Source of the DNA: Xylogone sp. PMI_703
Lineage: Eukaryota; Ascomycota; Leotiomycetes
Length of the DNA stretch: 64,000 nt
Direction of reading: 5' to 3'
Assembly (NCBI GenBank): GCA_021399445.1
Contig: JAJTUQ010000014.1
Location: 294,362 to 358,361 of the forward strand
A program made the position numbers and the translations under genes. Below, piece after piece: positions 4,177-62,340 of the stretch. Numbering within the stretch: the first letter of the stretch is position 1; each line of letters begins with the position of its first letter. Below the pieces are notes generated by a model, which saw only the letters and a program-made list of their open reading frames with translations, made no database searches and was not told the DNA's origin.

Positions 4177-4710
4177 ATACTACTCAAACGTCTATACTCT
4201 GGAGAAGGCAAATAAGTAAAAAGAAAAAGATCACGAAAATTACAAAAAGTCATAAATTTTTTTATTTATATCTAGTCTTATAGAATTAAGATATTTCTTT
4301 GTACTTTTTGTACTTATAATAATAAGATTTACAGGATAGTTCCTGAGTCAAATCGTTATAGTAAATATACCTTGTACTATTAGACATACAATAATAAAGA
4401 TATTCTTGTGATTTCCTGGGAAACTTTAGATCAGGAGGAGGCTTGCCTCGAGGCCAAGAAAGAGAAGGCTGCCCAGGCCATGGCTGAAAATGCTGCCTGT
4501 CTGGCTTGTTTAAGGAAATAAAGAAAGTTTTTACAGAAGTATACTAAGGAGATAATTCGTCATAGTTTGAAGACTCTGGATGAGTTGGACGTTGCCGAAA
4601 AGAAGGAACATGCTAAACAAGAGAATTCTGACCATATAGTTATAACTTCTTCAAGTGGCTCTGTCTTCTCGAATTCTCAGATTAACGATTTCCTTGGGTC
4701 TTCTGACTAA
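4177..4710 (+). pseudogene. Antisense Zn2Cys6-like gene of element B1
   Basis: Runs against the direction of B1 gag-pol, between the chromodomain and the 3' LTR. A frame with only four RIP-type stops ends at TAA 4708-4710. At 4300-4389 it has six Cys or Cys-to-Tyr positions spaced C-X2-C-X6-C-X8-C-X2-C-X6-C, the Gal4-type zinc cluster spacing. A charged region follows (DQEEACLEAKKEKAAQ, then HSLKTLDELDVAEKKEHA), a likely coiled coil, then a Ser-rich tail (SSSGSVFSNSQ). A start at 4177 is a guess: ATA there could be a mutated ATG. DNA binding is inferred from spacing alone. I know similar Cys-rich hypothetical proteins in fungi but no assigned function. Confidence 0.7.
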
Positions 4711-4779
4711 ATTTATTCTAGTGACTTAATATTAAATAATCTAACTTAGTATATTTAACCTTAAACTCCTGAACTTTCT

Positions 4780-7700
4780 GTTAGACGTTCTTAAGCTTTT
4801 CTGTTAGTTCTTAAGTATTTTCTGACTCTGGGTACTCTTTCTATTTGATTAGATACTGAATTTTCTTCTTGAAGATTCTTTGTCCTTTTACGCTTTCTAC
4901 TTTGTATTCCTTTTCTGGGTTAAAGTTTTCTGTTTTTAGGTATATGATTATTAATGTTTTTGGTAATATTTGTTTTAGTATAACAATATAGAAAATTAAG
5001 TATATTTTAGTGTCCTTGGGTAATTTTAGTTTATATGTTACTTATCTTAATATTTTGTTGATTTTCAGTAATCTTATTTTTTTGAAATTCAGTGATTTAT
5101 TTAGTTTTTTAGTTTTGATGAATTTTTGTAAGAAATATACTTTATCCTTTTTCTTAAATATAAGTTCTATTTTATATTATTTGTTATAATATTTTTTTAT
5201 TCTTTCTCTGATTTTTTCTAGGTTCTGTTGTATAATTGCTTGAGTTTTTTTAATAAGCTTGATTTTTTCTTTTATTGTTATTATTATATTAGGTATTTTT
5301 TTCCATAAGTATGTTATACTCATTTCTTTTCTGAAATTTGTATAATGAGGTGATATTTGTGTACTGTTGTACTTTACTCTGTTGTATATATACTGTATTG
5401 TTGGTAACAGTTTAACCTAATTATTTTGTAAATAATTAATATATGCCTTAAAGTATTACTTGAGTGTTTGAATCAGTCTTTCAGTACTTCTGTCAGTTTG
5501 GGCCTATCCTTTGGTGGCTATCTTAGTTTTGGTCTTTATTATAGTGGTGAATACTTGCTAAAACTTTAATATAAACAACTTGTCCCTGTCAGAGATGATT
5601 TTCTTTGGAAATCCGAATATCACGAATATTCTGCTCATGAGTATATCTATTAATTGTTCTGTTGTATAAGTACTTTTCCATGGTATAAAGACCTTGTACT
5701 TGATTAGTCTATTTATGATTATTAATACTCTGTCGTAGATCTTGTTGTTTATGTTTAATGATAATAGTAAGTTTATTATAAAGTCTATTGTTATTAACTC
5801 TTATAGTCTTTCTGGTATTTCCAACAGTTGCAGTAATCTATGTATAATTTTTTGTGTTGGTTTTGTTCTATAGCATATGTTATATACTTTGACAATTTCT
5901 TATATTGTTTTCTGTAACTTAAGTATGTAAAATTCCGGGCTAAGAAGTTTGTGTATTTTTGTGATTCCTTGATGCTTATACAGTAGTAAGTCATATATGT
6001 ATTTGATAAACTCCTTGGCTAGTGATTGTGGTATATAGATTCTTTCGTTACAAAACTATATTCCTGGTTCTTTAATAGATTCCTCCTATTTGTCATCTGG
6101 ATTTGGCTCTTGAAATAGTGCCTTAGCTTTCTTGACTTCATGTTTAACAGCCTGGACTATTTTCTTTGTCTATTCTACGTCAAATTCCCAATCTTCAGCC
6201 CCTTGGGCAAGGTGATTATATATTAATGTTTTATTTTCTTCTTCCTTAAATATAACCTTAACTTCTGGTTCAGCCTTTTTTATATAATCTGGTCTTTTAC
6301 TAAATATATTTGCTTTAGTATTCTCAGTTCCTTTGATATGCCTTATTCTGAAGTTATATTGTACAAGTTCTTCTGACTATCTAGTTTGTTTAATGTTCAA
6401 GATCTTAATACTGGTGAAATATTTTAAGTTATAATAATCTATAAGTATTTTTACTTCTGATCCCAGGAGGTATACTCTCTAGGTTTTGAACATGTTCATT
6501 ATAGTTAATAATTCTTTATCATAGATGTTATAATTCCTTTTTGCAGGGGAGAACTTTCTCGAATAAAAGGCTATTAGCCTCTATCTTTTGTCAAAGTATA
6601 ATTAGCTTAAGGCTGCTCTTAAGGCTTTGTTCGATGTATTTACTTCGACTCTCGTTAATAGTCTTGCCTGAAAAATTACTAAGATTATTCTTTCGTCAAA
6701 CTAGTCCTTAAGTTTCTGTTATACTTCCTATTCTCTGTTTTCGAACTTAAATTCCTGATCTTTCTTGGTTAAATCGTTTAATAGTATGACAATATCTGAG
6801 AACTTGTGAATATACTTCTGGTAGAAGTTATATATTCCTTTGAAAGCTTGAATATCCTTAACATTCTTTAAATTAGGCCATTCCTTTATGTTGGCCACTT
6901 TCTGTAGGTCTATTCGAAAACCTTCTCTTGAAATTATGTGTCTTAGGAATTCTACCTCTGTCTAGTAGAATGTACACTTCCAGGGTTAACATTACATATT
7001 ATTGTTCAATAAGATTTGTAAAACCTTTTCCATATATTCTCGGTGTTTCTCTAATGTCTTAAAGTAAATTAGTAAGTCATCAATATAAGCTATGACAAAT
7101 ATGTCCAGGTATAGTACAAGTATGTAATTCATTATCCTTTGGAATATTGTAAGTGAGTTGGTGAGTCTTATTGGTAAGATTAAGTATTCGAACAGTTTAT
7201 AGTATATTCTAAATACTATTTTCTATTCATCTCTTTCTGTGATCTTGACTAAATGAAATCCTGTCCAGAAATCTAACTTCATGAAGTACTTAGTATTTGT
7301 TAATCTTTTTTGTAGGTCTGAGATAAGCAGTATCAGATATTGGTCTTTGATTATGATATCGTTTAGTCCTCGGTAATCTACAACCATTTTCCATTTCTTT
7401 AGTCTTTTTTTTAAAATATATATTATTAATACTTTACATAATATTTCTGAGGGTCTGATATGTCCTTTTGTTAATAACTGGTCTAGTTCCTCTCATAAGA
7501 CTTGTCGTTATTCTTCGTTCATCGTATATAATCAGTAGTATAATAAGTGAGTTCTTTCTTTCAGGTGTATGTGGTAATCTCAAGGTTTCTGTAGTAGTAA
7601 GACCTTTATGTCTGGTAGTTCTTTGAATAATTTCTGATATTTCTGATATTCTATAAGTAATATTGGTGTCGTTTCTGTATTATTTACTTATGTTGGTAGG

Positions 7701-8470
7701 TCAGCTAGTCATAAGTTTCCTGTCTTGCTGAATTTTATTATTTGGTTTGTTTTTTAATTTATTTATAGGTTATAGTTTTTGAACCATAATATTTTTATGA
7801 TTGTTTTATATTTACTTAGTTCTGATACGTCAAACATAATCTTCGTCTTTTCTCTGGATATCTCTATTATTAATAGCTCAATCTCTGTTTTTACTCAAGA
7901 AGAAGTATTTGATCTATTTACTATTCTGATAAAGTAACTCTTTCTTTTAACTTTAGTATTCAGTCTTAGTCGAGTGACTGCTTCAGATGTAATAAGGTTA
8001 ATTATATTATTGTTATCGAACATTATTATTAGGTCTTGTTCTTTTAGCTTGATAGGCATCGTCAAAAGAGAACTTCCAAAAATTATGTTAGTTTTAGTAT
8101 ATTCTTCTTTGTTGTTGTCCTTGTGCCAAAGGTTGATTATCTCGTCGAATTTATATTATCTTCTTATTTTATAACCTTAGTATGATATGTACAGTTTGTA
8201 GTGAAACTTCTTATCATTAGGTATAACTTTAGTCTATATAGTCTTATGTTCTGTTTTTATTTATACTGTTTATATGTCAGGAAGATTCTTCTATATTAGT
8301 GGTGTTATTGTTAGTGGTATAGTAGTGTATAATGCTTTTGTCTATAACAGGTTCAAGCTTAAGTAGTAATAAGACTTAGATATAACTTTTATGATTGTTC
8401 CGAAGTTTGTAATCTTATCTTTAGCTAGATATGGTTTTATTTATTCTTGCTGGTGTTTTACTATAGACTA
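4780..8470 (-). pseudogene. B1 pol: protease, RT, RNase H, integrase, chromodomain
   Basis: Pol of a chromovirus, read from high to low coordinates. Protease remnant near 8000 (FDNNNIINLI). Reverse transcriptase 7530-6950 with KKWKMVVDYRGLND and an intact active-site box AYIDDLLIY near 7070-7090. RNase H about 6750-6200 ([20 protein letters not shown]). Integrase about 5900-5400: TIDFI and IISDRDKLF keep two acidic catalytic positions, and KYKVFIPWKSTYTTEQL lies between them. A C-terminal chromodomain near 4780-4890 reads YLIK-KEYPESENT, with Trp lost to a stop. Numerous stops at former Trp and Gln codons make it inactive, though it is one of the better preserved copies. Confidence 0.85.
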
Positions 8471-10153
8471 TATTCTGTATTGACTTTCTTAGTCTTCCCT
8501 GATTCTTATAAGCATTACTTTTTTGCCTGCCTCAGGGGCTCCTGTGTGTTCAGGGTTTCTTTTCAGCCTATATGACTCTCTAGTCATTGGTGCCGATTCT
8601 GGCTGTTTGCCTTTCGTAGTTTGGCTGGGGCCTGGCTCTATTGGTTCTTTTATCGTTCTGAACCAGTCCTTTATTTCTTCTGGTGTATGTTGTGTAATGT
8701 CCTTTAGTATTCTCATTAGTACTTTATGTCTTAAGGCTTTCTTATTAGGTTTTGGGGCTGAGTCTTCCTTCTTGACTGAGTCTTCTTTAACCTGGGCTTT
8801 AAAAAATGCTTCCTTGAAGTTTAGTATATCAGAGAGTCAAGGTTTAGTCCCTTTTGTTGAGGTATTGTCGTACGCCTCTATATTGCTACCCTCTTGCTCT
8901 CTTTCCAAGTTATCTTTGGTATAAGCTTCCCTTTTTGATTTATATACTGGATACTTGTACAGGATTTGGCTTACTGACAAGTCTTTGTTATCTTCTGGCT
9001 ATGACTTCGATTTGCTAGAGGATACTTGTCTCATGGCTCACTATTTTATCTCGGCTTCTGCCTCAGTTTCTGCTTCTGTAAATGCTTCTTCTTCTTCTGG
9101 AGTGATTGTCATGTTGACTTCTGCGAATATTACTTCTTTACCTTTCCCTTTATACTCAGACTTTAGCTTTGTCTCTTCTGTATTATTAGTCTGTTTACCC
9201 TTGAGCTTACTATCCTTGCTGTACTCATGAGTTATATACTTAGGTAAGTAGCATTTAAAATATAAATTCTTTTCTCTGTATTTCTTCTGTTGTTCTGGTG
9301 TTAAGTTATACTTTCCTCTTTTCTTAGAGTCTCTTTTGGAGGTTATATTTGCTTTTTAGTCCATGGTATCAGGGTCTTTTTTAGATCTTTTCCCTTTTCC
9401 TTCGGAACTTTGCTTCTTGTTGTTCTAGTTTGTTGCTTTATCCTTTTTTATCTAGTGTTTCTCTTATTAGTAATTATTTATCTTAATAACTTCTTTTATG
9501 AGTTCCTCTAGGCTTCTTGGGCCTGGCCTCAGCCAAGTTATTTTGTTTATTACTGTATTCTTAAGGCTTTCTTTGTAATAGTACATCAGGACTTTGTTGT
9601 CCTAGTCTGCTTAAAAGGTTAGTATACAGAACTTTATATTATGATTCTGTACTGATCTTGTCTGCTTAAGCTTATTTAACTACCTGAAAACTTCCTGTTT
9701 CTTGTTTGTGTTATCGAATAGTTAATTTATCTTGTCCTAGAAATTGTTCAGATTTCTAAATAAGTTAGTCGTTTCCTGTTATTTGTCCTTTTTCTTCTTG
9801 ATAATGTTGTAGAAATTCTTTATATATAATAACAGAAGTTTGAATATGTTTTTTTCCAAGTATATGACGACTTAGAATATATAGTCTTGTTTATTCTTAA
9901 AAGTGGTTTTGTTGAATTTCAGGAATAAACGAACTTGTATCTTGAAGACTTTGTACTTAGATTTGTCTCTGTTAAATTTGGCTGGCGTGATTACTTTGGG
10001 TGGTTTAGGTAGTAAGATGACTCGTAGGAATTCTTATTCTTTATCGTTATCGTTGTCCGATAGGGGTGAGTTTGGTGTTGGTATAGGGCCTGGTATAGGG
10101 TCTGGTGCTGTGTGTTTTATCCCTGACATAGGGCTTGCTTGCTGACTTGTCAT
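8471..10153 (-). pseudogene. B1 gag
   Basis: Starts at an intact ATG (10153-10151), MTSQQASPMSGIKHTAPD. The same start is ATA in B2 and B3. The N-terminal half has KFNRDKSKYKVFKIQVRLFL, typical of the capsid of fungal gypsy elements. A CCHC knuckle remnant near 9240-9290 reads YFKCYLPKYITHEYSK. The C-terminal part is acidic, then basic with RESYRLKRNPEHT, in an open stretch 8489-8716 that is unusually little mutated. Long open frames on the plus strand here (8523-8924, 9903-10145) are shadows of this gene. Confidence 0.78.
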
Positions 10154-10537: not shown

Positions 10538-10542
10538 ATAGC

Positions 10543-15500: not shown

Positions 15501-16580
15501 TTTCATAAGATTTATCACAAGATTACTTTTATCCAGAAATGTTAACAGACTAAATAAAGATTATTATGATTTAATCCTCATTATAATAAATAAACTTATA
15601 AAACACTTTATCATATTATTATAAAAAAAAATATAAACGACTGAAGATTTAACGGAAATCACGATTTCCAGGGTTATAACAAATTATAATATCTTAACAG
15701 AAATTATTTCAAACAAAAATAAACTTTTTATATCAAAATTCTGAAAAATAATCTACAAGAGATTAAACATTAAAAGGAAAATTATTACAAAAAGATAAAC
15801 TCAGACAAATAATCAAATCAAAAGAATAAATTAGATCATAAAAGCTTATTTTTGTTATTATATAAATTATAAACAGTCAAATTAGAAAAATCTTTTACTA
15901 ATAACATAATTAACATATAATAATATAAAAAACAAAACTACTAAAGTTATACTTTTTTTTGCGAATTATGGTTACAAAACCTAAACTTACTTCATAAAAA
16001 CAGAGATAAAAAACATTTCCAAAATAGTTAAACAGTAAGTAAAAGAATTAAAGAAAATCCATAATTACTTAAAGTATAACATTAAATTTACATAAAAACA
16101 TATAAAGAAATACTATAATCAAAAATATAATATAAAACCAAAATTTAAAAAAAAAAATTTATATTATTTATAGATTTATCAAAATAATAAGACTAAACAA
16201 TAAATTAGACTAAAAAAAGATTAGTTTATACAAAATTAAAAAAAAATTAAGAAATTTAATATATAAACTAAAACTCTTTAACATTATACGAATATACTTA
16301 ATATTTTATATAGTTATACTAGAAAAAGTATTACCAAAATTATTACTGACTCTAGACTTAAAACTAAAATAAGACTCAAATATGAAATAAAAAGTTAAAA
16401 AAATCTTAGACAATAAGTTAATAAAGAATAAAAAAACAATATTTAGTCAAATGGAAAAAATAAAAAAAATATAAATAGTTAAATACATAAAAACCTGAAA
16501 AACATTTTATTAACTTTAATAAACTTTTAGAAAAGTATAAATAAACAAAGTAAACCAGGACAGATCAAATAGAATATCAG
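12500..16580 (+). pseudogene. Element A pol: protease to chromodomain
   Basis: Protease remnant about 13180-13460: IKFNNKKLKTIINSKNQINL, where the Asp of the D-S-G triad has become Asn. Reverse transcriptase about 13790-14460 with YLNNILIYSKTLEKH, the YXDD box decayed to YLNN. RNase H about 14640-15060, integrase about 15290-16000 (zinc-binding region KTSRKKL near 15430, then the core), and a chromodomain remnant near 16440-16550 (KPEKHFINFNKLLEKYK). The frame is broken throughout. Orthologous parts of C2 confirm the domain order. Confidence 0.8.
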
Positions 16581-16589
16581 TATAAACAA

Positions 16590-17215
16590 AGAAATCAGTG
16601 TTAAAGAAGAAAATTTCAAAAATCCAGTCTTTATTAACTAAATAGTTTCTGATTATTATAATATTTTTTTTTCTTTCTTTTTCTTGGGTTTCTTTTTCTT
16701 TTTAACAATATTTAGTTTATTTAACAATTTTAGACCTTGACAAAATATTTTTATTATATATATTCTAAACATTTTATGTTATTTGTTAAGGTAAAGGACT
16801 TTTGCCTAAGTTTTGATGACTTTTTGTTAAGTTTTTAATCACAAAAAGTTAGCTTTTTCTTAATCTTCTGAAAGTTTTTGCTCTTTGTGACTAAATACCT
16901 CCTAATCAGCAGCTGAAAGGCCATAAATATCATATTTTGTACTGTTATTTACTTTGATGTATTCTGAGCATTTTAACGAATCTGGAGTAATTTAATATAT
17001 TAGTTTTTTCTTTTTGTATTTATTATAAAAAGATATTTTGATTTCAGTATCTTTAACATAAATTAATAATTTTGGTAAAACTTTTTTTTTCCGTTTTTGT
17101 ACAGTTTTGTTATAATTCTGTTCAAGTTTATGTTTAAAAGATATAATGAAAAGGAAAGAAGGTTTAGATTGTTGTAAAATCTTATATGTTTTATTTATAA
17201 AGCTTTAAGACAAAG
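16590..17215 (-). pseudogene. Antisense Zn2Cys6-like gene of element A
   Basis: Opposite in direction to element A pol. At 17027-16932 (minus strand) six Cys or Tyr-for-Cys positions are spaced C-X2-C-X6-C-X8-C-X2-C-X8-C, including KCSEYIKVNNSTKYD and a basic loop KKKKLI. A charged stretch with GLSAADXEVFSHKEQKLSED follows, probably helical. Stops lie at sites expected from RIP. The spacing fits Gal4-type zinc clusters; function unknown. Confidence 0.65.
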
Positions 17216-17235
17216 CTAAGTTAAGAAAGGAATAA

Positions 17236-20800: not shown

Positions 20801-21960
20801 TAATTATAACGTTTGTTATAAAGCTAAAATATCAAGAAAAAAGCTCATAAGATAATTAATGCTTTTTCAAATACCAGAAAAACTTTAAACTTTTATTTCA
20901 TAAAACTTTATCACAAAATTACTTTTATCAAGAAATGTTAACAGACTAGACAAAAATTATTATAACTCTATCTTCATCATAATGAACAAACTCATGAAAT
21001 ATTTTATTATATTATTATAAAAAGAAATATAAACAACAGAAGACTTAATAGAAATCATAATCTCTAAAGTTATTATAGAATATAATATTCTGTCAGAAAT
21101 CATTTTAGACAAAAACAAATTTTTTACATCAAAATTCTAAGAAATAATCTATAAGAAATTAGTTATTAAGAGGAAAATCATCATAAAAGGATAAACTTAA
21201 ACAGATAACCAGACTAAACAGATTAACCAGATTATAAAAGTTTGTTTTCATTATTATATAAATTATAAATAATCAAATTAGAAAAATCTTTTATTAATAA
21301 TATAATTAACATAAAATAATATAAAGAGTAAAACTACTAAAGTTATATCTTTCTTTGTAAATTATAATTATAAAACCTAAACTTATTTTATAAAAATAAA
21401 AATAAAAAACATTTTCAAGATAATTAAATAATAAACAGACAAATTAGAAAAAATCCATAATCACTTAAAGTATAATATCAAATTCGTACAAAAATATATG
21501 AAAAAATATTATAATTAAAAATATAATATAAAATTTAAACTTAAAGAAAGAGATAAAGTTTATATTATTTGTAGATTTATTAAAACAACAAAACTGAACA
21601 ATAAATTAAACTAAAAAAAGATTAACTTATACAAAATAAAATAAAAACTAAAAAATCTAATATATAAACTAAAATTCTTTAATATTATATAAATATATTT
21701 AGTATTTTATATAACTATACTAGAAAAAATATCATCAAAATCGTTATTAGTTTTAGACTTAAAGCTAAAATAAGATCTAAACATAAAGTAAAAAATTAAA
21801 GAAATCCTAAATGACAAATTAATAAAAAATAAGAAATATTACTTAGTCAGATAAAAGAAATAAAAAAAATACAAATAATTAAATATATAAAAACTAGAAA
21901 AATATTTTACTAACTTTAATAAGTTTCTAGAGAAGTACAAACAAATAAAACAAGTTAGGA
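17841..21960 (+). pseudogene. Element D: rest of gag, then pol
   Basis: Resumes gag after the element A insertion. Protease remnant about 18560-18870 (INSRNQINLILPKVTKVL, catalytic Asp lost). Reverse transcriptase about 19150-19880; the best preserved part is 19540-19734, MTNIPTIIQKMNNTILKLY then IIYLNNILIYSKILEKH. RNase H about 20040-20450, integrase about 20690-21420, chromodomain remnant near 21830-21950. Very many stops. Confidence 0.78.
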
Positions 21961-22500
21961 CAAATCAAACAAAACATTAACATAAACAGAAAAATCAGTG
22001 TCAGAGAAGAAAACCTCAGAAAAGCTAATTTTGGCCTGATGAATAATTTCTGTTTATTATAACATCTTATCTTTTTTTTATTTCTGTTTAATTCTTTTTT
22101 CTTCTTTTTCAATATTTAACTTATCTAAGGAATAAAGACTTTAACAAACCATTTTAACTTTATACTTGTTAAATAAATATTATTATTTTCATAAACAAAG
22201 AATCTTTATTATAATGTTTTCTTTTTCCTTTTTTAACTTCTTACATTATTTATCAATAATTTCTTAACTTTTAATTAAGATAATCTTTATATTATAATTA
22301 GTATACTTTTTTCGAATACACTTTATACACCAAAATGATTTATTAAAATCAACCAAATACTTATAACTCTTAATTTCACAAAGAAAACAAAGAATCATCT
22401 TATCATTAATATTATTAAAATAATAAATTAGATAAATATGTTTATAATCTTTCTTAAACTTTTCAATGTCTGTAAATTCAAGATAACACTTTAGGAACAT
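21940..22500 (-). pseudogene. Antisense Zn2Cys6-like gene of element D
   Basis: Opens at ATG 22500 (MFLKCYLEFTDIEKFKKDY) and stays open for 78 codons; the same start and sequence recur in element E at 61798. The cluster at 22389-22294 reads ILCFLCEIKSYKYLVDF, then WCIKCIRKKYTNYN: C-X2-C-X6-C-X9-C-X2-C-X7-C with two positions now Tyr. The downstream charged part is broken. The conserved Met shared with E supports this start and supports a real coding sequence against the direction of pol. Confidence 0.72.
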
Positions 22501-26499: not shown

Positions 26500-29400
26500 C
26501 CTTAAACTCTCGAACTTTCCGTTAAATGTTCTTAAGTTCTTTTACTAGTTCTTAAGTATTTTCTGACTTTGGGTACCTCTTCCATTTGATCAGATACTGA
26601 ACTTTCTTTTTGAAAATCCTCTATCTTTTTATACTTTTCACTTTATATTCTTTTTCTAGGTTAAGATTTTCTGTTTCTAAGTACATAATTATTAACATTT
26701 CTGGTAATACTTATTTTAGTATAATAACATAAAAAACTAAATGTATTTTAGTATCTTTAGGTAGTTTTAACTTATATATTACTTATCCCAAAACTTTATC
26801 GATTTCTAGTAATTTTATTTTCTTGAAATCTAATGATTTACTTAATTTTTTAGTTTTGATAAATTTTCGTAAGAGATATACTTTATCCTTTTTCTTAAAT
26901 ATAAATTCTATTCTATATTATTTATTATAATATTTTTTCATTCTTTCTCTGACTTCTTCTAGGTTTTGTTGCATAACTACTTATATTTCCTTGATGAACT
27001 TAACTCTTTCTTCTATTATTATTATTATATTAAATATCTTTTTCCACAAGTATATTGTACTCATTTCTTTTCCGAAATTTGTATAATAAGGTAATACTTA
27101 TATATTATTATACTTTACTCTGTTATATGTACATTGTACTGTTAGTAACAACTTAACCTAATTATCCTGTAAGTAATTAATATATACCTTGAAATATTAC
27201 TTAAACATCTAAATTAGTCTTTTAATACTTCTGTCGGTCTATGTTTATCTTTTGGTGACTATCTTAGTTTTAGTCTTTATTATAGTAATAAGTACTTGCC
27301 AAAACTTTGATATAAACAATTTATTTTTATTAAAGATGATTTCTTTTGGAAATCCAAATATTATGAATACTCTGCTTATAAGCATATCTGTTAACTGTTC
27401 TGCTATGTAAGTACTTTTCCATAGTATAAAGATCCTGTACTTGGTTAGTCTATCTATGACTACTAATACCTTGTCATAGATCTCGTTGTTTATATCTAAT
27501 AATAATAATAAGTCTATTATAAAGTCCATTACTATCGACTCCTATAGTCCTTCTAGTATTTCCAACAGTTATAATAATCTATATATAATTTTTCGCATTA
27601 ATTTTGTTCTATAACATATGTTATATACTTTAACAACTTCTTATATTATTTTCTATAACTTAAGTATATAAAACTCTAGACTAAGAAGTTCGTACATCTT
27701 TGTGATTCCTTGATACTCATGCAGTAATGAGTCATGTATATACTTAATAAACTTCTTAGTTAAGGATTGTGATATATAGATTCTCTTGTTACAAAACCAC
27801 ATTCTTGGTTCCTCAATAGATTCTTCTTATTTGTCGTCTGGACTTAACTCCTGAAATAATGCTTTAACCTTCTTGATTTCATACTTAATGGCCTGGACTA
27901 TCTTCTTCGTCCATTTTACATCAAATTCTTATTCTTCAGCTCTTTAAGTTAAGTAATTATATACTAATATTTTATCTTCTTCCTCTTTAAGAATAGCTTT
28001 AACTTCTGGTTCAGCCTTTTTTATATAATCTGGTCTTTTGCTAAATATATCTGTTTTAGTATTCTCAGTTCCTTTGATATGCCTTATTTTGAAGTTATAC
28101 TATATAAGTTCTTCTGACCATTTAACTTGTCTAACATTTAATATTTTGATATTAACAAAATATCTTAAGTTATAATAATCTATAAGTACTTTTACTTCTA
28201 ATCTTAGAAAGTATACTCTCTAGGTTTTGAACATATTTATTATAGTTAATAATTCCTTATCATAAATGTCATAATTCCTTTCTGCAGGAAAAAACTTCCT
28301 TGAGTAAAAAACTATCAGTCTCCATCTCCCATTAAAGTATAACTGACTTAAAACTACTCTTAATAATTCATTCGATACATCCACTTCAATTCTAGTTAAC
28401 AGTCCTGCCTAGAATATTACCAAGATTATTCCTTCATTGAATTAATCCTTAAGCCTTTACCATACTTCTTGTTCCTTATTTTCGAATTTGAATTCCCGAT
28501 CTTTCTTGGTTAAGTCGTTTAATAATACAATAATATCCAAGAATTTATAAACATATTTCCGATAAAAGTTACATATTCCCTTGAATACCTGAACATCTCT
28601 GACATTCTTTGGATCAGGCCATTCTCTTATACTGACTATCTTCTATAAATCCATTCAGAATCCTTCTCTTGATACTATATACTTTAGGAATTCTACTTCT
28701 GTTTGATGGAATATACATTTATATGATTAGCATCATATATTATTATTTATTAAAATCTGTAAAATCTTTTCTACATATTCCCTGTATTCTTCTAACATTC
28801 TAGAATAAATCAATAAATCATCAATATAAATTATGACGAACATATTCAAGTATAACATAAGTATATAGTTTATTATCCTTTGGAATATTACAAATAAGTT
28901 AATAAGTCTTATTAACAAAACCAAATATTCGAACAATCCATAACATATTCTGAATACTATCTTCTATTCATCTCCTTCTGTGATCCTGACTAGATAAAAT
29001 CCTATCCAGAAATCTAACTTCATAAAGTACTTAACACTTGTTAATCTCTTCTGTAAGTCCGAGATAAACAGTATCAGATATTAATCCTTGATTATAATAT
29101 CGTTTAATCCTCAATAATCTACAACCATTCTTCATTTCTTTGGTCCTTTCTTTGGAACATACATTACTAATACCTTACATAATACTTCTGAGAGTCTAAT
29201 ATGTCTTTTTGCTAATAACTAATCTAATTCTTCTCGTAAGACTTGTCGTTGTTCTTCGTTCATCGTATATAGTCAACAATATAATAAGTAAGTTCCTTCT
29301 TTCAAGTATATATAATAATCCTAAGGTTTTCTTAACAGTAAAACTTCCGCGTCCAGTAATTCTTCGAATAACTTCTGATATTTCTGATACTCCATAAGTA

Positions 29401-39400: not shown

Positions 39401-40585
39401 ACAAGAAATTATTAAAATCGTCAATAACTATAATATTTATTATAGGGCTAGAACATCAAAAAAGAAGTCTATAAGATAATTAATATTTCTTCAAATACCA
39501 GAAAAGTCTTGAACTTTTATTTCATAAGATTTATCATAAGATTACTTCCATCAAGAAATACTAACAAACTAGATGAAGATTACTATGACTTAATCTTTAC
39601 TATAATAAATAAACTTACAAAATACTTTATCATGTTACTATAGAAAGAAACATAAATAGCCAAGGATTTGGCAGAAATCATAATCTCCAGGGTTATAATA
39701 AATTATAATATTTTAACAAAAATTATTTCGGACAAAAATAAGCTCTTTACGTCGAAATTCTGGGAAATAATTTATAAAAGATTAAACATTAAAAGAAAAA
39801 TTTCTACAAAAGAATAGGCTTAAACAGATAGTCAGATCAAACAAGTAAACCAGATCATAAGAACTTATCTTTACTATTATATGGATTATAAGTAGTTAAA
39901 TTGGAAAGATCTTTTACTAATAGTGTAACTAATGTATAATAGCACAAAGAGTAAAACTACTAAAGTTATACCTTTTGTGTGAATTATAGCTATAAAGCCT
40001 AAACCCATTTTATAAAAACAGAAGTAAAAAACATTTTTAAGACAGTTAAACAATAAGTAAACAAATTGGAAAAAATCTATAATTACTTAAATATAATATC
40101 AAATTCATACAAGAACATATGAAGAAATACTATAATCAAAAGTATAATATAAAACTTAAGCTTAAAGAAGAGGATAAAATTTATATTATTCGTAGATTTA
40201 TCAAAATAATAAGACTAAGTGATAAATTGGACTAGAAAAAGATTAACTTATATAAAATCAAAAAGAAATTAAGAAATCTAATATATAAACTAAAACTCTT
40301 TAACATTATGTAAATATACTTAGTATTTTATGTAATTGTACTAGAAAAAGTACCCTCAGGTTTATTACTGGCTTTAGACTTAAAGCTGGAATAAAACCCA
40401 AATATAAAATAGAAAGTCGAAAAGATCCTGGATAATAAGTTAATAAGAAACAAGAAATAATACTTAGTCAAATAGAAAAAATAAAAAGAATATAGATAGT
40501 TAGATACTTGGGAATCAGAGAAATATCTTATTAACTCTAATAAACTCCTGGAGGAGTACGAACAGGTAAAACAATCCAGGATAGA
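36480..40585 (+). pseudogene. C2 pol: protease to chromodomain
   Basis: Protease in the open stretch 37167-37352 (LKALMNSGNQINLILPQV; the triad Asp has become Asn). Reverse transcriptase 37800-38560, with open stretch 38193-38414 IIYLNNILIYSKILEEHKQH (YXDD decayed to YLNN). RNase H 38640-39080 (LLKTDT, then FHSRKLILTKLNYDIYNKEL). Integrase 39290-40000. Chromodomain 40455-40570, ending WESEKYLINSNKLLEEYEQ, the typical W-E-x-E close of retroelement chromodomains. The pol end overlaps the tail of the antisense gene. Confidence 0.85.
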
Positions 40586-41180
40586 TTAAACAGAACATTG
40601 GTATAAGTAAAGAAGTCAGCGTCGGAGGAGAAAGCCTCTGAAGAACCAATTTCTGCTTGAGGGGTAACTTTAGCCTATTATAATAACTCTTTTTCTTTCT
40701 GTTCCTGATCAAGTTTTTCCTTCTTTTCTGCTTTGTCCAGTTTATCGAAAGATTTCAAGCTTTTACGAATCATCTTCTTTATATGTTTACGAAAGAACTT
40801 CTGTTGTTTCTCCAGATGGGCCAGCCAAGTTATATTCTCTGCTAGGATTTGTGTTATTTTCTTCTTCTTAATCTCCAGTCAATCATATTTATGACTATAA
40901 GACTCCCAGGAAAAAATGAAAAGGCTCTCCTTATCACAGGTCAAATCACGAAATATATATTCCTTATAATGACTAAAACTTACTGTCTTTTTACAAGATA
41001 AGGTGTTTTTTTCACAAAACGAACAAAGTATTATTTCAAAATCAAAGTTATTTATAAAATTTCTTAAATTTACTCTTTCTTGGACTTTCTTTGACTTTTT
41101 CTTTTTGACCTTTACTTCAATTTCTGTTATAAGTCTTTTTGAAAGTATAATGATAGAAAAGAAAAAAGAAATTAATTTCT
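40565..41180 (-). pseudogene. Antisense Zn2Cys6-like gene of element C2 (best preserved)
   Basis: About 200 codons on the strand opposite to C2 pol, broken by only three stops, each explained by one G-to-A or C-to-T change. Order: basic N-terminus (KVKKKKSKKVQERVNLRNF); cluster at 41025-40936, CSFCEKNTLSCKKTVSF, then YKEYIFRDLTCDKE, spacing C-X2-C-X6-C-X8-C-X2-C-X6-C with four of six Cys intact; a long charged helix (EKQQKFFRKHIKKMIRKSL, DKLDKAEKKEKLDQEQKEK), likely coiled coil; and a conserved end SSEAFSSDADFFTYTNVLF also visible in E. The protein design resembles a small DNA-binding dimer, but no function is shown. Confidence 0.78.
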
Positions 41181-41793: not shown

Positions 41794-44440
41794 AAAAATT
41801 TAAATAACAAAACCATAAAAAACAAATATTTATTATTTTATATTAATGGTATATAAGATATATTTATTAGAGTAAAATATTTTACGAAATTAGACTTTAT
41901 TATAAGGTTTAACTTGATAAGGATCAAGGAAAAACATAAGTAATATATAGTTATTCGAATTAAGTATAAACTTTATAAATTTTTGGTTATATTGTTTAAT
42001 CTGACAAATATATTAGTAATTATGCAAAAAGTGAATAATATGATTTTGAGATTATATTTAGATTACTTTATAGTAATATACTTAGATAATATCTTGATTT
42101 ATTCTAAGATGTTAGAAAAACATAAATAGTATATTTGTATTATACTAAAAACATTAATTGATAATAATATGAAATATAAACTAGTTAAGTATTAGTTTAA
42201 TATGATAAAAATAAAATTTTTAAGTAAAATAGTTTTGGACAAAAAATTTTGAATAAATCTAAAGAAAGTAAAAACTATTAGAAAATAGTTTACTCTAAGA
42301 ATAGTCAAGAAAGTCCAATAGTTTAATGGACTTGTTATTTATTACAGACGTTATGTAATGAGCTATTCAGCAAAAGTTGGCCTGTTAACGGAATTGACAA
42401 AAAAGGATATACTTTTTGTTTAAGATAAAAGACAAGAAAGAGCTTTCCAAGAGGTTAAAGATTAGTATAATGAAGACAAAATATTAGCTTATGTTGATTC
42501 CGAGAAATTATATTAACTAAAGACAGATGTCTTGGACAGGGCATTAAAAAGGGTTTTGTTACAAAAAGATGACAAAGGACGATAGAGGCCAGTAGCCTTT
42601 TATTCCCGAAAGTTTATTTTAGTTAAGTTAAATTATAATATTTATGAAAAAGAACTTTTGGCTATTGTAGAATACTATAAGTACTAGAAGGTTTATTTAT
42701 GTAATATTAAACATCAGTTTGAAATTTTATCAGACTACAAGAATTTAATAACTTTTATGATTACTAAAGATTTTAACAAAAAACAAGTACATTAGTATAA
42801 AACGTTAGTATAATATGATTTCAGAATTTATTATATTTAAAGAACAAAGAATATTAAAGTTAATACTTTGAACAAGCAATTAAACTATATAAAAGGAAGT
42901 TCAAGACAAGAATTTATTATATTTAGGAGAAAAGGTAATACTTTATGTTTTAATTATATACAAATATTAGTGATTATATAAGTTATTGACAAAGAATGGC
43001 TAAAAAAAATTAAGTTAATTATTATAAAAGAGAAAGAAATCTCTAAAGATCTTAAGGCTGATTAGCTCAAAGATCAGGAATTTCTAGGCATTTAGCTAAA
43101 GGACAAAAGAATATTCGTTCTATTAGTAATTATCCAAGAGTTTATGAAAGAATAATACAAATTATTTATATATAATTATCAAGGAATCATTAAGATCAAA
43201 AATAGGTTATAACAAGAATTCTTTATCTTTAAATTTTAGTAAGAAGTTACCAAAATCGTCAATAATTATAATGTTTGTCATAAAGCTAATATATCAAGAA
43301 AGAAGCTTATAAGACAATTAATGTTTTTTTAAATACCAGAAAAGCCTTGGACTTTTATTTCATAAGATTTTATCATAAGATTATCTTTATCAAAAAGTGT
43401 TAACAGACTAGATGAAGATTACTATATCTTAATCTTTATTATAGTAAATAAACTTATGAAATACTTTATTATGTTATTATAGAAGAAAATATAAATAACC
43501 AAAGATTTAGCGGAAATTATAATTTCTAAGATTATAATAAATTATAATATCTTGATAAAAATTATATCGGATAAAGATAAACTCTTTATGTCGAAATTCT
43601 AGGAAGCAATTTACAAAAAATTAAGTATTAAAAAGAAAATTATCACGAAAAAATAGACTTAGATGGATGGTCAGACTGAGTAAATTAACCAGATTATAGA
43701 AGTTTATCTTTGTTATTATATAGATTATAAGTAATCAAATTAGAAAAACTTTTTACTAATAATATAATTAATATATAATAATGTAAAGAGTAAAACTATT
43801 AAAGTTATACTTTTCTTTGTGAACTATAATTATAAAGCCTAAACTCATTTTATAAAAACAGAAGTAAAAAACATTTTTAAGATAGTTGAATAATAAGTAG
43901 ATAAATTGAAAAAAATCTATAATTACTTAAAGTACAATATTAAATTTGTATAAAAATATATAAAGAAATATTATAACTAAAAGTATAATATAAAACTTAA
44001 ACTTAAAAAAAAGGATAAAGTTTATATTATTTATAAATTTATCAAAATAATAAAACTAAATAATAAATTAAACTAGAAAAAGATTAATTTATACAAAATC
44101 AAAAAGAAACTAAGAAATCTGACATATAAACTAAAACTTCTTAATATTATATGAATATATTTAATATTTTATGTAATTATACTAGAAAAAGTATTTTTAA
44201 GTTTATTATCAACTCCAGACTTAAAAGTTAAAATGAGATTCAAACATAAAATAAAAAGTCGAAGAAATCTTAAATAACAAATTAATAAAGAATAAAAAAC
44301 ATTATTTGATCAGATGAAAAGAATAAAAGAAATATAAATAATTAAATACTTAAGAACTAGAGAAGTATCTCATTGATTTTAATAAGTTCTTAAAGGAGTA
44401 TGAACAAATAAAATAAGCCAGGATAAATTAAACAGAATAT
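41794..44440 (+). pseudogene. C1 pol continued: reverse transcriptase, RNase H, integrase, chromodomain
   Basis: Picks up at KFKXQNHKKQIF-like text that matches C2 from 37955. The RT active-site area near 42070-42110 reads VIYLDNILIYSKMLEKH, keeping the first Asp of the YXDD pair. RNase H about 42480-42860 (LKTDVLDRALKRVLLQKDDK, then FYSRKFILVKLNYNIYEKEL). Integrase about 43100-43900. Chromodomain end near 44330-44410. Confidence 0.82.
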
Positions 44441-45055
44441 CAATATAAACAAAGAAATTAGTGTCAAAGGGGAAAACCTCTGAAGAACTAGCCTTTGCTT
44501 GAGGAGTAATTTTAGTTTATTATAATGATATTTTTTTTTTGTTCCTGATTAAGCTTTTCTTTCTTTTCTACTTTGTTCAGTTTATCTAAAGACTTCAAGC
44601 TTTTATGAATCATCTTTTTTATATGTTTACGAAAAAACTTTTGTTATTTCTCTAAATAAACTAGTTAAGTTATATTCTTTACTAAAATTTGTATTATTTT
44701 TTCTTTTTTAGCTTTTAGTCAGTTATATTTATGATTATAAGACTCTCAGGAAGAAATGAAAAGGCTTTCCTTATTATAAATCAAACTACGAAATATATAT
44801 TCTTTATAATAACTAAAACTTATTATCTTTTTATAAAACAAAGTATTTTTTTTACAAAATGAATAAAACATTATTTCGAAACTAAAGTTATTTATAAAAT
44901 TTTTTAGATTTACTTTTTTTTGGACTTTCTTTGACTTTTTCTTTTTAATTTTTAATTTAGTTTTTGTTATAAGTCTTTTTGAGAATATAATAATAAAAAA
45001 GAAAAAGGAAATTAGTTTCCTAAAGATTATTTTTAGTTAAACTATAAGCCTTAGG
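44440..45055 (-). pseudogene. Antisense Zn2Cys6-like gene of element C1
   Basis: Same layout as in C2. The cluster at 44865-44776 reads YSFCKKNTLFYKKIISF, then YKEYIFRSLIYNKE; the spacing is unchanged although five of the six cysteines have become Tyr. The charged helical region after it is recognisable but more broken. Confidence 0.66.
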
Positions 45056-57647: not shown

Positions 57648-57652
57648 GAACC

Positions 57653-58985
57653 AAATCCAGACGACAAATAGGAAAAATCCATGGAAGAACCAGGAATGTG
57701 GTTTTATAACGAAAAAATCTATATACCATAATCCTTAACCAAGAAGTTTGTCAAGTACATATATAACTCATTATTATATAAACATCAAGAAATTATTAAA
57801 ATGTATAAACTTCTTAGTCCAGAGTTTTATATACTTAAGTTACAGAAAATGATATAAAAGGTCATCAAAGCGTATAATATATACTATAAAACAAAACTAA
57901 CACAAAGAATTATATATAAATTATTATAACCATTAAAAGTACCAGAAAGATTATAAGAATCAATAATAATAGACTTTATAATAGACTTATTACTATCATT
58001 GAACATAAATAACAAGATCTACGATAAAGTATTGATAGTCATAGACAGGCTAACCAAATACAAAGTCTTCATACTATGGAAAAGTACTTATACAATAAAA
58101 CAGTTAACAAATATGCTTATGAACAAAGTATTCACAATATTCGGATTTCCGAAAGAAATCATCTTTAATAAAGACAAACTATTTATATCAAAGTTTTGGC
58201 AAACACTTATTACCATAATAAAGACCAAGACTAAAATAATCACTAAAAGATAAGCACAAACTGACAGAAGTACTGAAAGATTAATTCAGACATTCAAACA
58301 ATACTTCAGAATATATGTCAATTATTTACAAAATAATTAAGTTAAACTATTATCAATAGCATAATATATATACAACAGAGCAAGATATGATAATACATAA
58401 GTATTACTTTATTACACAAATTTCAGAAAAAAAATAAATACAATATACTTATGGAAAAAAACACTTAATATAATAATAATAATAAAAGAAAGAGTCAAGC
58501 TCATTAAGGAAACATAAATAATTATATAACAAAACTTGGAAAAAGTCAGAGAAAAAATAAAAAAATACTATAATAAATAATATAAAATAAAACTTATATT
58601 TAAGAAAAAGGATAAAATATACTTTTTACAAAAATTCATCAAAACTAAAAAACTAAATGAATTATTGGATTTCAAGAAAATAAGATTATTAAAAATTGAT
58701 GAAGTTTTAAGACAAATAATATATAAGTTAAAATTACCCAAAAATACTAAAATATATTTAATCTTTTATGTCATTATACTAGAACAAATATTACCAGAAA
58801 CATTAATAATCATATATCTAAAAGCAGAAAATCTTAACTTAGAAAAAGAATACAAAATGAAAAACGTAAAAAGACAAAAGATCTTCAGAAAAAAAGTTCA
58901 GTATCTGATTAAATGGAAAGAGTACCCAGAGTCAGAAAATACTTAAGAATCAGTAAAAAAACTCAAGAATACTTAATAAAAGATT
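57653..58985 (+). pseudogene. B3 pol, second part: integrase and chromodomain
   Basis: Integrase zinc-binding region about 57750-57900, then the core in the open stretch 57999-58253 (YDKVLIVIDRLTKYKVFILW, FGFPKEIIFNKDKLFISKFW; the second Asp is altered to Asn). The C-terminal region from 58665 (DFKKIRLLKIDEVLRQIIYK) runs into a chromodomain at 58885-58985: VQYLIKWKEYPESENT, stop, ESVKKL, with the Trp after NT lost to a stop. Confidence 0.85.
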
Positions 58986-59039
58986 CAGGAGTTTGAGACC
59001 AGATATACTAAACTAAGTTGTTCAATGTTAAATCATTAA

Positions 59040-59575
59040 ACAAGTCATTAAACTGAGAATCCGAGAAAACGGGGTCATCTGAGGAAGTTATAACTATATG
59101 GTCAAAACTCTTTTATTCAGTATGCTCCTTCTCTTTGACAGTGTCAAACTTCTCTAAACTGTTCAAACCTTTCTTTAACATTTCAATACTACATATTTTT
59201 AGTTACTTCTGGAGTTTTCGTAAATATATTCAATAAGCAAAGATTTCCTGCTCAGCCAAGGTTATAATCTTCTTCTCGGCTTCTAGGTAAGTTTCCTTGG
59301 CCTTTAGCTTTTCTTACTCCTCAGGAAAAAAGCTATAAATATTGTACTTCATATTATTACTTACAATAATATACTCAGAATAACATAAAAAATAAGAAAC
59401 AATAATATATTTCTTGTCTAAATACTTATAATGATTATACTAAAACATTTTTATGCTTTTGGATTTTATTTACTCTGATAATTTTATTTTGTTTTTTTTC
59501 TTTTTTTCTTTTACTGATTCTTAGTATTTTTGTGTTATAAAATACTTAAGTAGTATAATGAAAAAAAGGAAAATT
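59040..59575 (-). pseudogene. Antisense Zn2Cys6-like gene of element B3
   Basis: Opposite to B3 pol. At 59439-59344 all six expected Cys codons have become Tyr (TAT/TAC) but the spacing is exact: C-X2-C-X6-C-X8-C-X2-C-X8-C (YNHYKYLDKKY, then YSEYIIVSNNMKYN). Charged helix EKLKAKETYLEAEKKIITLA and LNSLEKFDTVKEKEH follow, then a Ser/Asp-rich tail as in B1. Confidence 0.68.
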
Positions 59576-59645
59576 TAAAGAATAATGAGATTATTCTTAC
59601 TTTAGCTTTAAGCTTCAGGATGAAGCTAGGTTAAAAGGGGGATAA

Positions 59646-60003: not shown

Positions 60004-60008
60004 TTTAA

Positions 60009-60540
60009 TTAATGAAGAGTTTATTAACTTAGAAAAGTAAAAGGTTCTAATAACCAAAAATCGTAATAGGTTATATTCTTAAATTAAATTTATAAGAATT
60101 TTAATGTTATTCTTATATTCTTTTTGTGAAAAAAAGAAATTAGATTATGGTATAACGAAAAGTTCTTGTTATATAGAATATGTGAAAGCCAGGGGTTATA
60201 CGAAATATGATATTCTTTTTCTGAGTCCTGAGGAATAAAACAGGATAACTCATGAAGAGGCTTAGCTAAAGGCTAATTATAAAAAGGTTTTAGTTAAATT
60301 TTTTAAGCTTAATATATAACAATAATAACTTTATTCTTGTGTTAGTGAAATATTCTAAAGAAGACTTACTATTTTAGACAAATTAAATATTAAAGAGGAA
60401 AAAGAAAGACTTAAACAAGAACAGGAAAAAAAGGAAATACTTTAACAGACAAAAGTTATTCAACAGATAAAGATTAATCTTTCTGAGGCTTTTTTCTTTG
60501 ACATTAATTTTTTGTTTATATTGATGTTTTATTTAATTTA
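60009..60540 (+). pseudogene. Antisense Zn2Cys6-like gene of element F, rest
   Basis: Continues from 52569 after the B3 insertion. The cluster at 60116-60208 reads YSFCEKKKLDYGITKSSC, then YIEYVKARGYTKYD: C-X2-C-X6-C-X7-C-X2-C-X8-C. The downstream charged helix LDKLNIKEEKERLKQEQEK and a tail SEAFFFDINFLF resemble C2 and E. Element F pol lies on the minus strand, so this gene is again antisense to pol. Confidence 0.7.
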
Positions 60541-61079
60541 TCCTGACTGACTTTGTCTTTATACATTTTTAGAGATTCATTAAAATTAATAAAAGACTTT
60601 TTTGGTTTTTATATATTTAATTATTTATACTTTTCTTATTCTTTTTATCTGACCAAATAATACTTTTTGTTCTTTATTAACTTATTATTTAAAATTTCTT
60701 TTATTTTTTATTTTTTATTTAGATTTTATTCTAGTTTTAAATCTAGAGTTAATAATAATCTTAAGAATACTTTTTCTAGTATAATTATATAAAATATAAA
60801 ATATATTTATATAATATTAAAAAGTTTGAATTTATATATCAGATTTCTTAATTTCTTTTTGATTTTGTATAAGTCAATCTTTTTCTAATCTAATTTATTA
60901 TTTAGTTTTGTTATTTTGATAAATCTATAAATAATATAAACTTTATTTCCTTCTTTAAGCTTAAGTTTTATATTATATTTTTGATTATAGTATTTTTATA
61001 TATATTCTTGTATAAACTTGATATTATACTTTAAGTAGTTATAGATTTTTTTAATTTGTTTACTTATTGTTTAACTGTT
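60541..61079 (-). pseudogene. Element F pol 3' end (chromodomain, integrase C-terminus)
   Basis: Homologous to 62340-62860 of element E and, in reverse, to 43950-44440 of C1. Very AT-rich, with no open frame. Interrupted at 61079 by element E, so the rest of F lies beyond the window. Confidence 0.65.
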
Positions 61080-61697
61080 TATAACGTTCTTACGTTAAGA
61101 TTTGGCTATTACTCAAATAATAAGCTTAAGAGATCAAGGAAGTAAGTAAAACTGTAAATTATAGAACTTTACTATAAAATGCAAGTATATTATAAATCAA
61201 TTGAGTTAAATACAAGACTTTTATCTATCGTAAAATTATTTACTTATATAATATATATTAATGACTAGATCTTTTTAGATCTTTTTGCTCCTAGATCCAG
61301 GAGATCTTATCTGGTCCTAGATCCAAGAGATCTTATCTAGTCCTCTTTGTTATATACTTATTTATTTGTTAATATTAACTTTTTGTACATATAAACAAAT
61401 AGTTAATATAAACAGAAAAGTAATATTATTTCCTTAATAATATTATTACCTAATTAATATAACCAAAGAATTAATACTATAACTTTGATAATATTATCTT
61501 TTAACTTATATATCTCTTTTCATAATACTAATATTAAATTTATATTATCTTTTTGTTAATATTAATAATATAATAATATTAATAATATTATAACTAAGTT
61601 CTTGATAATTGTTTTAAGTTATACTTATTTAATTAAAGTAATAATTATAAAAGCTTTATACTTAAGTCATTTGTCATAATCTTACAAAGTCATAATA
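61080..61697 (-). repeat. Element E 3' LTR (618 bp)
   Basis: A-type LTR from TATAACGTTCTTACG to GTCATAATA. The palindrome block (about 61268-61345) is built from AGATCT and CTAGATCCAGGAG repeats, like that of element D and unlike F. Confidence 0.88.
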
Positions 61698-61797
61698 CTA
61701 TCCTTTTTTTAACTTAACTTTGTTTTAAAATTTATAACTAAAATATAAAAAATCTTATAATAATTCAAACCTTCTTTCTTTCTTATTATGTTCTTAA

Positions 61798-62340
61798 AGT
61801 ATTATCTTGAATCTATAAACACTAAAAAATTTAAGAAGAATTATAAACATATCCATCTGATTTGTTATCTTGATAACGTTAATAACAAAATGATTCTTTG
61901 TTCTTTTTATAAAACTGAGAATTATAAGTATTTAGTTAATTTTGACAGATTATCTTAATATATAAAGTATATTCGACAAAAGTGTATTAGTTATAATATA
62001 AAGGTTATCTTAACTAAGAATTAAAAAATTATTAATAAATAATATAAAAGTTGAAAAAGGAAAAAGAAAATATTATAATAAAGATTTTCTGTCTATAAAA
62101 GTAATAATATCTGTTTGACGAGTATAAAGTCAAAATAGTTCACCAAGGTCTTTATTCCCTGGATAAGTTAGACATTAAGGAGGAAAAAGAGAGAATCGAA
62201 CAAAAGTAAAAAGAAAACAAAAATATTATAATAAGCAGAAATTACTTATTAAGCCAAGGTTAGTCCTCCTGAGGTTTTCCTTTTTGATACTAATTTCTTT
62301 ACTTATGTTAATGTTCTGTTCGATTTGTCTTAACTTATTT
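61798..62340 (+). pseudogene. Antisense Zn2Cys6-like gene of element E
   Basis: ATG 61798 (MFLKYYLESINTKKFKKNY), the same start as in D. The cluster at 61909-62004 has the D spacing C-X2-C-X6-C-X9-C-X2-C-X7-C (ILCSFYKTENYKYLVNF, then YIKYIRQKCISYN). After a frameshift near 62090: GLYSLDKLDIKEEKERIEQ, then SPPEVFLFDTNFFTYVNVLF, the conserved C-terminal signature. Stops at former Trp and Gln codons. Confidence 0.72.

What the first reader, a model, noticed from the sequence alone, without database searches (positions are those of the whole stretch)
4177..62340. A conserved antisense gene with Gal4-type Zn2Cys6 spacing in nine retrotransposon copies
Seen: between the chromodomain and the 3' LTR, on the strand opposite to pol, the nine copies (clusters at 4300, 16932, 22294, 26041, 40936, 44776, 59344, 60116, 61909) keep six Cys or Cys-to-Tyr positions spaced C-X2-C-X6-C-X7to9-C-X2-C-X6to8-C, followed by a charged helix and a shared tail. 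Known: Zn2Cys6 clusters of fungal regulators are C-X2-C-X6-C-X5to12-C-X2-C-X6to8-C. The spacing persists in two families whose LTRs and gag differ, which is hard to get by chance from antisense drift. Inference: these chromoviruses carried their own dimeric DNA-binding regulator, transcribed towards gag-pol from the 3' end. I know of no description of this arrangement.
Basis: partly seen in the sequence, partly recalled or inferred. Interest (0 to 1): 0.92.

Follow-up and report, generated by a model that had tools for sequence, protein, structure and literature searches.

The report
Swappable antisense zinc-cluster gene in retrotransposons
Fungal virus-like jumping elements carry, on the strand opposite to their main genes, a real protein gene that resembles fungal gene-switch proteins and seems to be traded between otherwise near-identical elements; a gene in this position was described before, its zinc-cluster look and the trading appear to be new.

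Summary
Four unmutated copies elsewhere in the genome have an open 209-codon antisense frame with all six Cys. In 67 of 67 distinct copies examined the gene lies antisense to the end of pol. Of 56 natural sequences aligned, 49 keep all six Cys. Transversions, which RIP does not make, show purifying selection on the antisense frame (Ka/Ks 0.17, one independent comparison). The Zn2Cys6 resemblance is consistent but weak: Pfam Zn_clus is matched by 34 of 58 proteins, over its cut-off by 1 of 58. DNA binding is inferred.

The arrangement is not new: brtn, an antisense gene of Boty-like elements of Botrytis, was published in 2011, and this is very probably its family. New here, as far as my searches show: the zinc-cluster reading, and exchange of the gene as a cassette. 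Elements whose pol differs by 0.4-0.6% in transversions carry antisense genes that differ by 14%, assorting independently of gag. I read it as a dimeric regulator of the element's own LTR or life cycle (0.6).

The parts
4225..4656 (+). antisense gene, RIP-mutated copy 1 (pol group 1); Cys/Tyr cluster 4300-4389
   Evidence: HMM of natural proteins 55.0 bits; pattern; antisense to pol
16665..17099 (-). antisense gene, copy 2; same antisense type as the four unmutated copies; cluster 16932-17027
   Evidence: 59.3 bits
22060..22458 (-). antisense gene, copy 3 (type of L048); cluster 22294-22389
   Evidence: 19.1 bits
26041..26361 (+). antisense gene, copy 4 (type of copy 1); cluster 26041-26130
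   Evidence: 31.8 bits over 26152-26361
40675..41103 (-). antisense gene, copy 5; cluster 40936-41025 with four Cys left
   Evidence: 71.5 bits
44533..44865 (-). antisense gene, copy 6 (type of copy 5); cluster 44776-44865
   Evidence: 28.7 bits over 44533-44778
59023..59514 (-). antisense gene, copy 7 (pol group 1, other antisense type than copies 1 and 4); cluster 59344-59439
   Evidence: 43.9 bits
60053..60445 (+). antisense gene, copy 8 (own antisense group and own pol group); cluster 60116-60208
   Evidence: 27.4 bits
61899..62221 (+). antisense gene, copy 9 (type of copy 3); cluster 61899-61994
   Evidence: 17.9 bits over 62045-62221
4721..5389 (-). pol C-terminus (SH3 + chromodomain region), sense strand, of copy 1
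   Evidence: tblastn of a natural pol piece
15913..16613 (+). pol C-terminus, sense strand, of copy 2
21324..22025 (+). pol C-terminus, sense strand, of copy 3
26573..27130 (-). pol C-terminus, sense strand, of copy 4
39935..40649 (+). pol C-terminus, sense strand, of copy 5
43771..44506 (+). pol C-terminus, sense strand, of copy 6
58368..59090 (+). pol C-terminus, sense strand, of copy 7
60489..61064 (-). pol C-terminus, sense strand, of copy 8
62269..62973 (-). pol C-terminus, sense strand, of copy 9
3716..4093 (-). 3' LTR of the element that holds copy 1 (approximate; its partner is at 10202-10544)
   Evidence: self-comparison of the window, pair 79.4% identical

Best explanation
Each element is a Ty3/gypsy chromovirus that carries an accessory gene on the opposite strand, starting about 90 nt inside the 3' LTR and running into the end of pol: a brtn-like antisense gene. 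Its product of about 200 residues has a basic N-terminus, a six-Cys Zn2Cys6-like cluster, a long helix that could form a coiled coil, a conserved RAAEMLRRGLKSLDELD helix and an acidic/aromatic tail. Most likely it is transcribed from the 3' LTR, enters the nucleus, dimerises through the helix, binds DNA and regulates its own element in trans (most simply LTR transcription, as activator or brake). Divergent versions of the gene are traded between elements by recombination. Shown by computation: coding, conservation, purifying selection, antisense position, and antisense types that do not follow pol or gag. Inferred: zinc and DNA binding, dimer, promoter, regulatory target, recombination as the cause.
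For: Open frame of 209 codons in four unmutated copies; in three of them both LTRs are identical over 607-610 aligned nt and the printed flanks show 5-bp direct repeats. 67 of 67 distinct copies antisense to pol. 49 of 56 natural sequences have all six Cys. Ka/Ks on transversions 0.16-0.20 between two antisense types, ten copies of one type. 96 of 96 in-frame stops in 11 copies of type A are reachable by C>T/G>A from the natural codon. Pfam Zn_clus is matched by 34 of 58 natural proteins and is the only family of which any of them passes the cut-off (P0020, 21.8 of 21 bits). Best PDB profile match PUT3, with HAP1 and CYP1 among the first seven rows; Cys-on-Cys alignment with host Zn2Cys6 domains, E 2.4e-4. 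AlphaFold mean pLDDT 82.3 with a short helix at each CxxC and helix 67-125; 7 of 8 Foldseek PDB rows are Pho7, HAP1 or PUT3. Cassette pattern.
Confidence: 0.6

Rival explanations
1. The protein is real but not a transcription factor: it works on the particle or the RNA, for example as a trans-acting copy-number brake or assembly partner of Gag, with the Cys cluster as an RNA-binding or structural zinc module.
For: Gag is the other part that varies strongly while pol stays nearly constant (4-12% transversions). Zinc and helical modules are compatible with RNA or protein binding. 57 of 58 proteins are below the Zn_clus cut-off.
Against: Antisense type and gag type assort independently: L042 and w16932 share the antisense gene (0.2%) but differ in gag (10.5%), L048 and L046b share gag (0.1%) but differ in the antisense gene (14.9%). 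The recurrent weak relatives are DNA-binding Zn2Cys6 proteins.
Confidence: 0.22
2. The antisense RNA is what matters: antisense transcription from the 3' LTR makes double-stranded RNA or interferes with the sense transcript, and the reading frame is secondary.
For: PMC8365987 reports many small RNAs from BcGypsy1, 3 and 4 of Botrytis (passages); PMC7264820 raises this for antisense ORFs (passages).
Against: Transversion Ka/Ks 0.17 with p 2e-12, codon-position bias 23/7/35 and six Cys kept in 49 of 56 natural sequences show selection on the protein.
Confidence: 0.07
3. Chance: a non-coding antisense frame kept open by composition or by the overlapping sense gene.
For: The last 131 nt do overlap pol, so the tail is under double constraint.
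Against: The only sense ORFs of 40 codons or more in the first 499 nt have 58 and 65 codons, and that part alone carries the selection signal. Natural proteins of other fungi match.
Confidence: 0.01
4. A host Zn2Cys6 gene captured recently by a few elements (transduction).
For: The host genome is rich in Zn2Cys6 domains (150 scored matches among 740 candidates).
Against: All 67 distinct copies examined sit antisense beside pol, on three pol groups; relatives in four named Helotiales species; similarity to host domains is remote. An old capture is not excluded.
Confidence: 0.05

Closest known systems
brtn, the antisense gene of Boty-like retrotransposons of Botrytis cinerea (Zhao et al. 2011, Virology 417:248; paper not held, title and citing passages seen)
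   Same: Antisense to gag-pol, between pol and 3' LTR, chromodomain Ty3/gypsy element, Helotiales; PMC7264820 also names Sclerotinia sclerotiorum. Family members found here include two Botrytis cinerea proteins.
   Different: The citing passages I saw mention no zinc cluster and no exchange between elements.
HBZ of HTLV-1 (as described in passages of PMC11963269 and PMC7264820; its bZIP nature is recalled)
   Same: Antisense gene driven from the 3' LTR whose product acts in the nucleus.
   Different: bZIP instead of a zinc cluster; animal retrovirus; no sequence relation was tested.
TRP28 antisense ORFs of Retand elements, gene23 of Grande, RIRE2 (plants; PMC11963269 and PMC7264820, abstract and passages)
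   Same: Antisense ORF between pol and 3' LTR; for TRP28, DNA binding and a regulatory role were proposed from sequence.
   Different: Other domain; Retand is a non-chromovirus plant lineage.
Fungal Zn2Cys6 regulators (PUT3, HAP1, CYP1, Pho7; PF00172)
   Same: Six Cys with mostly compatible spacing, helix at each CxxC, helical region C-terminal to the cluster.
   Different: 57 of 58 proteins below the Pfam cut-off; about 200 residues; encoded in a retrotransposon.

Membership tests
   49 of 56 sequences of A4 have all six Cys; of the other seven, six have Tyr for one or more and one has a gap. In A1, 26 of 28 rows that span the cluster have all six; 23 of 28 fit the spacing, the other five have 7, 8 or 12 residues in the second gap.
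Fungal Zn2Cys6 binuclear cluster (PF00172) | Score above the curated Pfam cut-off (21 bits) | tested here: inconclusive
   1 of 58 natural proteins (P0001-P0058) passes: P0020, 21.8 bits. 34 of 58 are matched at all, 11.8-21.8 bits; limits were E 10, 0.5 and 0.1 in different calls. UniRef names P0037 and P0051 Zn(2)-C6 fungal-type, though these score 13.6 and 17.8 here.
Fungal Zn2Cys6 binuclear cluster (PF00172) | Fold: two CxxC-helix halves around two zinc ions | tested here: inconclusive
Fungal Zn2Cys6 binuclear cluster (PF00172) | Binds zinc and specific DNA as regulator | not testable with these tools
brtn (antisense gene of Boty-like elements) | Antisense to gag-pol between pol and the 3' LTR of a chromodomain Ty3/gypsy element | tested here: met
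   Order RT, RNase H, integrase, SH3_Tf2-1, Chromo, antisense ORF 4613-5242 of L042 and LTR 3916-4526; 67 of 67 copies antisense.
brtn (antisense gene of Boty-like elements) | Sequence homology to BRTN | not tested
   BRTN sequence not held; two Botrytis cinerea proteins of the family found (P0027, P0055).
Ty3/gypsy chromovirus | LTRs with target-site duplication; RT-RNaseH-IN-chromodomain order | tested here: met
   for domains; for LTR ends; 5-bp flanking repeats read from its flanks in three of four young copies, not clear in the C9 copy.

The most novel reading that the evidence does not exclude
The antisense gene is a self-identity cassette of competing retrotransposons: a zinc-cluster, coiled-coil regulator that exists in many deeply diverged versions, is moved between element lineages by recombination while pol stays the same, and sets which elements can activate or suppress one another in the same nucleus.
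Probability: 0.25. Interest if true: 0.88.

Novelty: new variant of a known kind. Interest (0 to 1): 0.62.

Why it matters
Antisense genes of LTR retrotransposons are known from plants and Botrytis, but the two papers on them that I saw in passages (PMC7264820, PMC11963269) call their function unknown. A zinc-cluster identity would give a testable function: DNA binding to the element's own LTR. The cassette pattern points to selection for diverse versions of a regulator on a constant pol, a form of competition between mobile elements that my searches did not show described. Two UniRef Zn(2)-C6 names in the family show that such genes can be counted as host regulators.

Tried and rejected
Chance pattern: rejected. 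Non-coding frame: rejected. Host-gene status: none of the 67 copies lies away from pol. Relatives in viral contigs: 600 pattern matches, none confirmed. The first protein search, with the mutated window copy, found nothing; the natural frame found 30 proteins, the alignment 73. CGG/CCG half-sites in LTR plus leader: 5 CGG and 6 CCG, no array that stands out by eye; no statistical test was run. Structural search in viral models: best E 2.2. The list of VIA-align held no Gal4; this excludes nothing. Transversion Ka/Ks of two further antisense types against L042 is not significant (0.63, p 0.11 for L048; 0.59, p 0.079 for L049), probably because divergence and gaps make the alignment poor; I rest the selection claim on the A/B split, one independent comparison seen in ten copies. 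In the zinc-cluster codons alone the position bias is not significant (3/2/6 columns, p 0.31). Zinc cluster against helix: nonsynonymous transversions 5 of 203 against 14 of 267 (L059), too few to say that the helix evolves faster. Rows dropped: one search used 24 of 25 copies (L050 fell out). One search used 55 of 58 prepared segments (L015, L017, L035 had no anchor), drew on 18 of the 30 loci L011-L040 and on one of the four identical young copies, and counts L036/L046a and L012/L051 twice (53 distinct); L014 holds two neighbouring elements, so its group of one is unsure. Group limits (3% in pol, 6% in the antisense gene) were my choice; 3 of 63 sources (L024, L031, L037) had no HMM hit over 10 bits. 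One search used five of the nine host Zn2Cys6 loci first asked for. One search left out 21 of the 77 proteins held. In one search only the 7993 candidates sharing most words were scored.
Full report
What is there. The window (G000:C6:294362-358361 of a 50-Mb genome) is largely repeated, A+T-rich DNA. Nine such patterns compare with 0.5 (sd 0.7) in shuffles. A profile built from natural proteins finds these nine places and no others, all antisense to the C-terminal part of pol (9 of 9).

Unmutated copies. Searches of the genome gave 124 matching stretches with the natural frame as query and 91 with the window copy; some copies give two stretches. Four places (on C9, C12, C21 and C25) are identical in protein and open over 209 codons from ATG, with all six Cys. 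Their elements are 99.90-99.98% identical over 6 kb. In three of the four both LTRs are identical over 607-610 aligned nt with 5-bp flanking repeats; the C9 copy has 23 differences in its 5' LTR, 22 of them transitions, and no clear repeat. ORF pieces of L042 carry protease, RT, RNase H, integrase, SH3_Tf2-1 and chromodomain. The antisense ORF starts about 90 nt inside the 3' LTR (L042 4613; LTR match 3916-4526), and its last 131 nt overlap the end of pol (5112) and 29 nt of the chromodomain match. In 67 of 67 distinct copies from 63 sources the gene is antisense to pol; 3 sources gave no hit.

It is a protein. Database searches gave 30 and 73 relatives, 76 distinct proteins; 8 bear a species name, from four species, all Helotiales. 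In an alignment of 56 sequences, 49 have all six Cys; six of the other seven have Tyr for one or more Cys, one has a gap. All six Cys columns are at least 90% conserved. RIP makes transitions only (established knowledge), so I counted transversions. Between antisense type A (L042) and type B (L059) they fall 23/7/35 on codon positions 1/2/3 of the part that does not overlap pol; 33 are synonymous and 32 not, out of 151 and 845 possible: ratio 0.17, p 2e-12; nine further B-type copies give 0.16-0.20. These share one split, so this is one comparison. Types C and D give 0.63 and 0.59, not significant. Over 24 copies, 35/18/51 distinct columns hold a transversion (p 0.0004); within the zinc cluster alone 3/2/6, not significant. 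All 96 in-frame stops of 11 type-A copies are explained by C>T or G>A. The sense ORFs of 40 codons or more across the non-overlapping part have 58 and 65 codons.

Exchange of the gene. In pol group 0 (36 segments, 35 distinct copies) there are seven antisense groups, two of them of one copy; in pol group 1 (18, 17 distinct) there are three, one of them of one copy. Pairs with different antisense genes differ by a median of 13.9% (500 pairs) and 13.8% (69 pairs) in transversions in that gene but by 0.6% and 0.4% in pol; pairs with the same antisense gene differ by 0.0% and 2.5% in it. This is not only stronger constraint on pol: synonymous transversions are 2 of 152 possible in a pol piece against 33 of 151 in the antisense gene for the same pair (L059). 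Along the element, divergence from L042 peaks over the antisense gene and gag and is 0-2.9% in the windows from 5416 to 8115; parts of the LTR vary too. Antisense type and gag assort independently: L042 and w16932 share the antisense gene (0.2%) but not gag (10.5%); L048 and L046b share gag (0.1%) and pol (0.3%) but not the antisense gene (14.9%); L049 and w40936 share gag (0.7%) and pol (0.4%) but not the antisense gene (16.2%). One element beside a young copy has nearly the same LTR (0.8%) and overlap (0%) but a different antisense gene (12.2%); only 53 pol sites could be compared there (L044b). Recombination, for instance template switching between co-packaged RNAs, is the simplest cause (inference). 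In the database, 5 of 406 protein pairs show a tail at least 0.15 more identical than the body, led by P0025/P0027 (body 41%, tail 86%), as expected if the tail is tied to pol in other fungi too; in 292 of 406 pairs the body is the more similar part by as much, so the mosaic shows only among a few close pairs.

What is known. Zhao et al. 2011 reported 'the additional antisense gene brtn' in Boty-like elements; I saw the title and citing passages only, the paper is not held. PMC7264820 (abstract and passages) lists Boty of B. cinerea and S. sclerotiorum among antisense additional ORFs of unknown function. PMC11963269 (abstract and passages) proposes DNA binding and a regulatory role for antisense TRP28 proteins of plant Retand elements and compares them with antisense genes of retroviruses such as HBZ. 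My seven searches listed no paper on a zinc cluster in brtn or on exchange of antisense genes; I saw titles and the starts of abstracts in the listings, and passages of six papers. Zhao et al. may contain more. PMC5987419 (passages) reports a Monilinia transcript similar to Pol and BRTN, a hint of transcription without strand.

Mechanism. Shown: coding antisense gene, selection, conserved Cys, position, and decoupling of the antisense type from pol and gag. Inferred: 3' LTR promoter, nuclear entry, zinc and DNA binding, dimer, acidic/aromatic tail as activation region, target in the LTR. That elements with the same LTR carry different antisense genes suggests either one shared DNA site with differing dimer partners, or a target outside the LTR.

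Noticed in passing
L042 8416-9881 and related loci: Gag is a second variable part of these elements (about 4-12% transversions) while the stretch from protease to chromodomain stays nearly constant; in L042 gag-protease (7941-9881) and RT-integrase-chromodomain (5112-7880) are two separate ORFs.
   Followed up: partly
window 48429-49169: An open frame of 246 codons in a G+C-rich island (47-50 kb, 46-47% G+C) amid A+T-rich repeats; looks like an amidohydrolase-type host gene (recalled, not searched).
   Followed up: no
window 1-2550: Remains that look like a Ty1/copia-type element beside the gypsy elements (by eye, not searched).
   Followed up: no
G000 C9:144010-144620 (L053): The 5' LTR of one young copy has 23 differences from its 3' LTR, 22 of them transitions, while the other three young copies have identical LTRs: mutation seems to have hit one end only.
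   Followed up: partly
P0037, P0051: Two family members are named Zn(2)-C6 fungal-type domain proteins by UniRef, so antisense retrotransposon genes may sit in counts of host regulators.
   Followed up: partly
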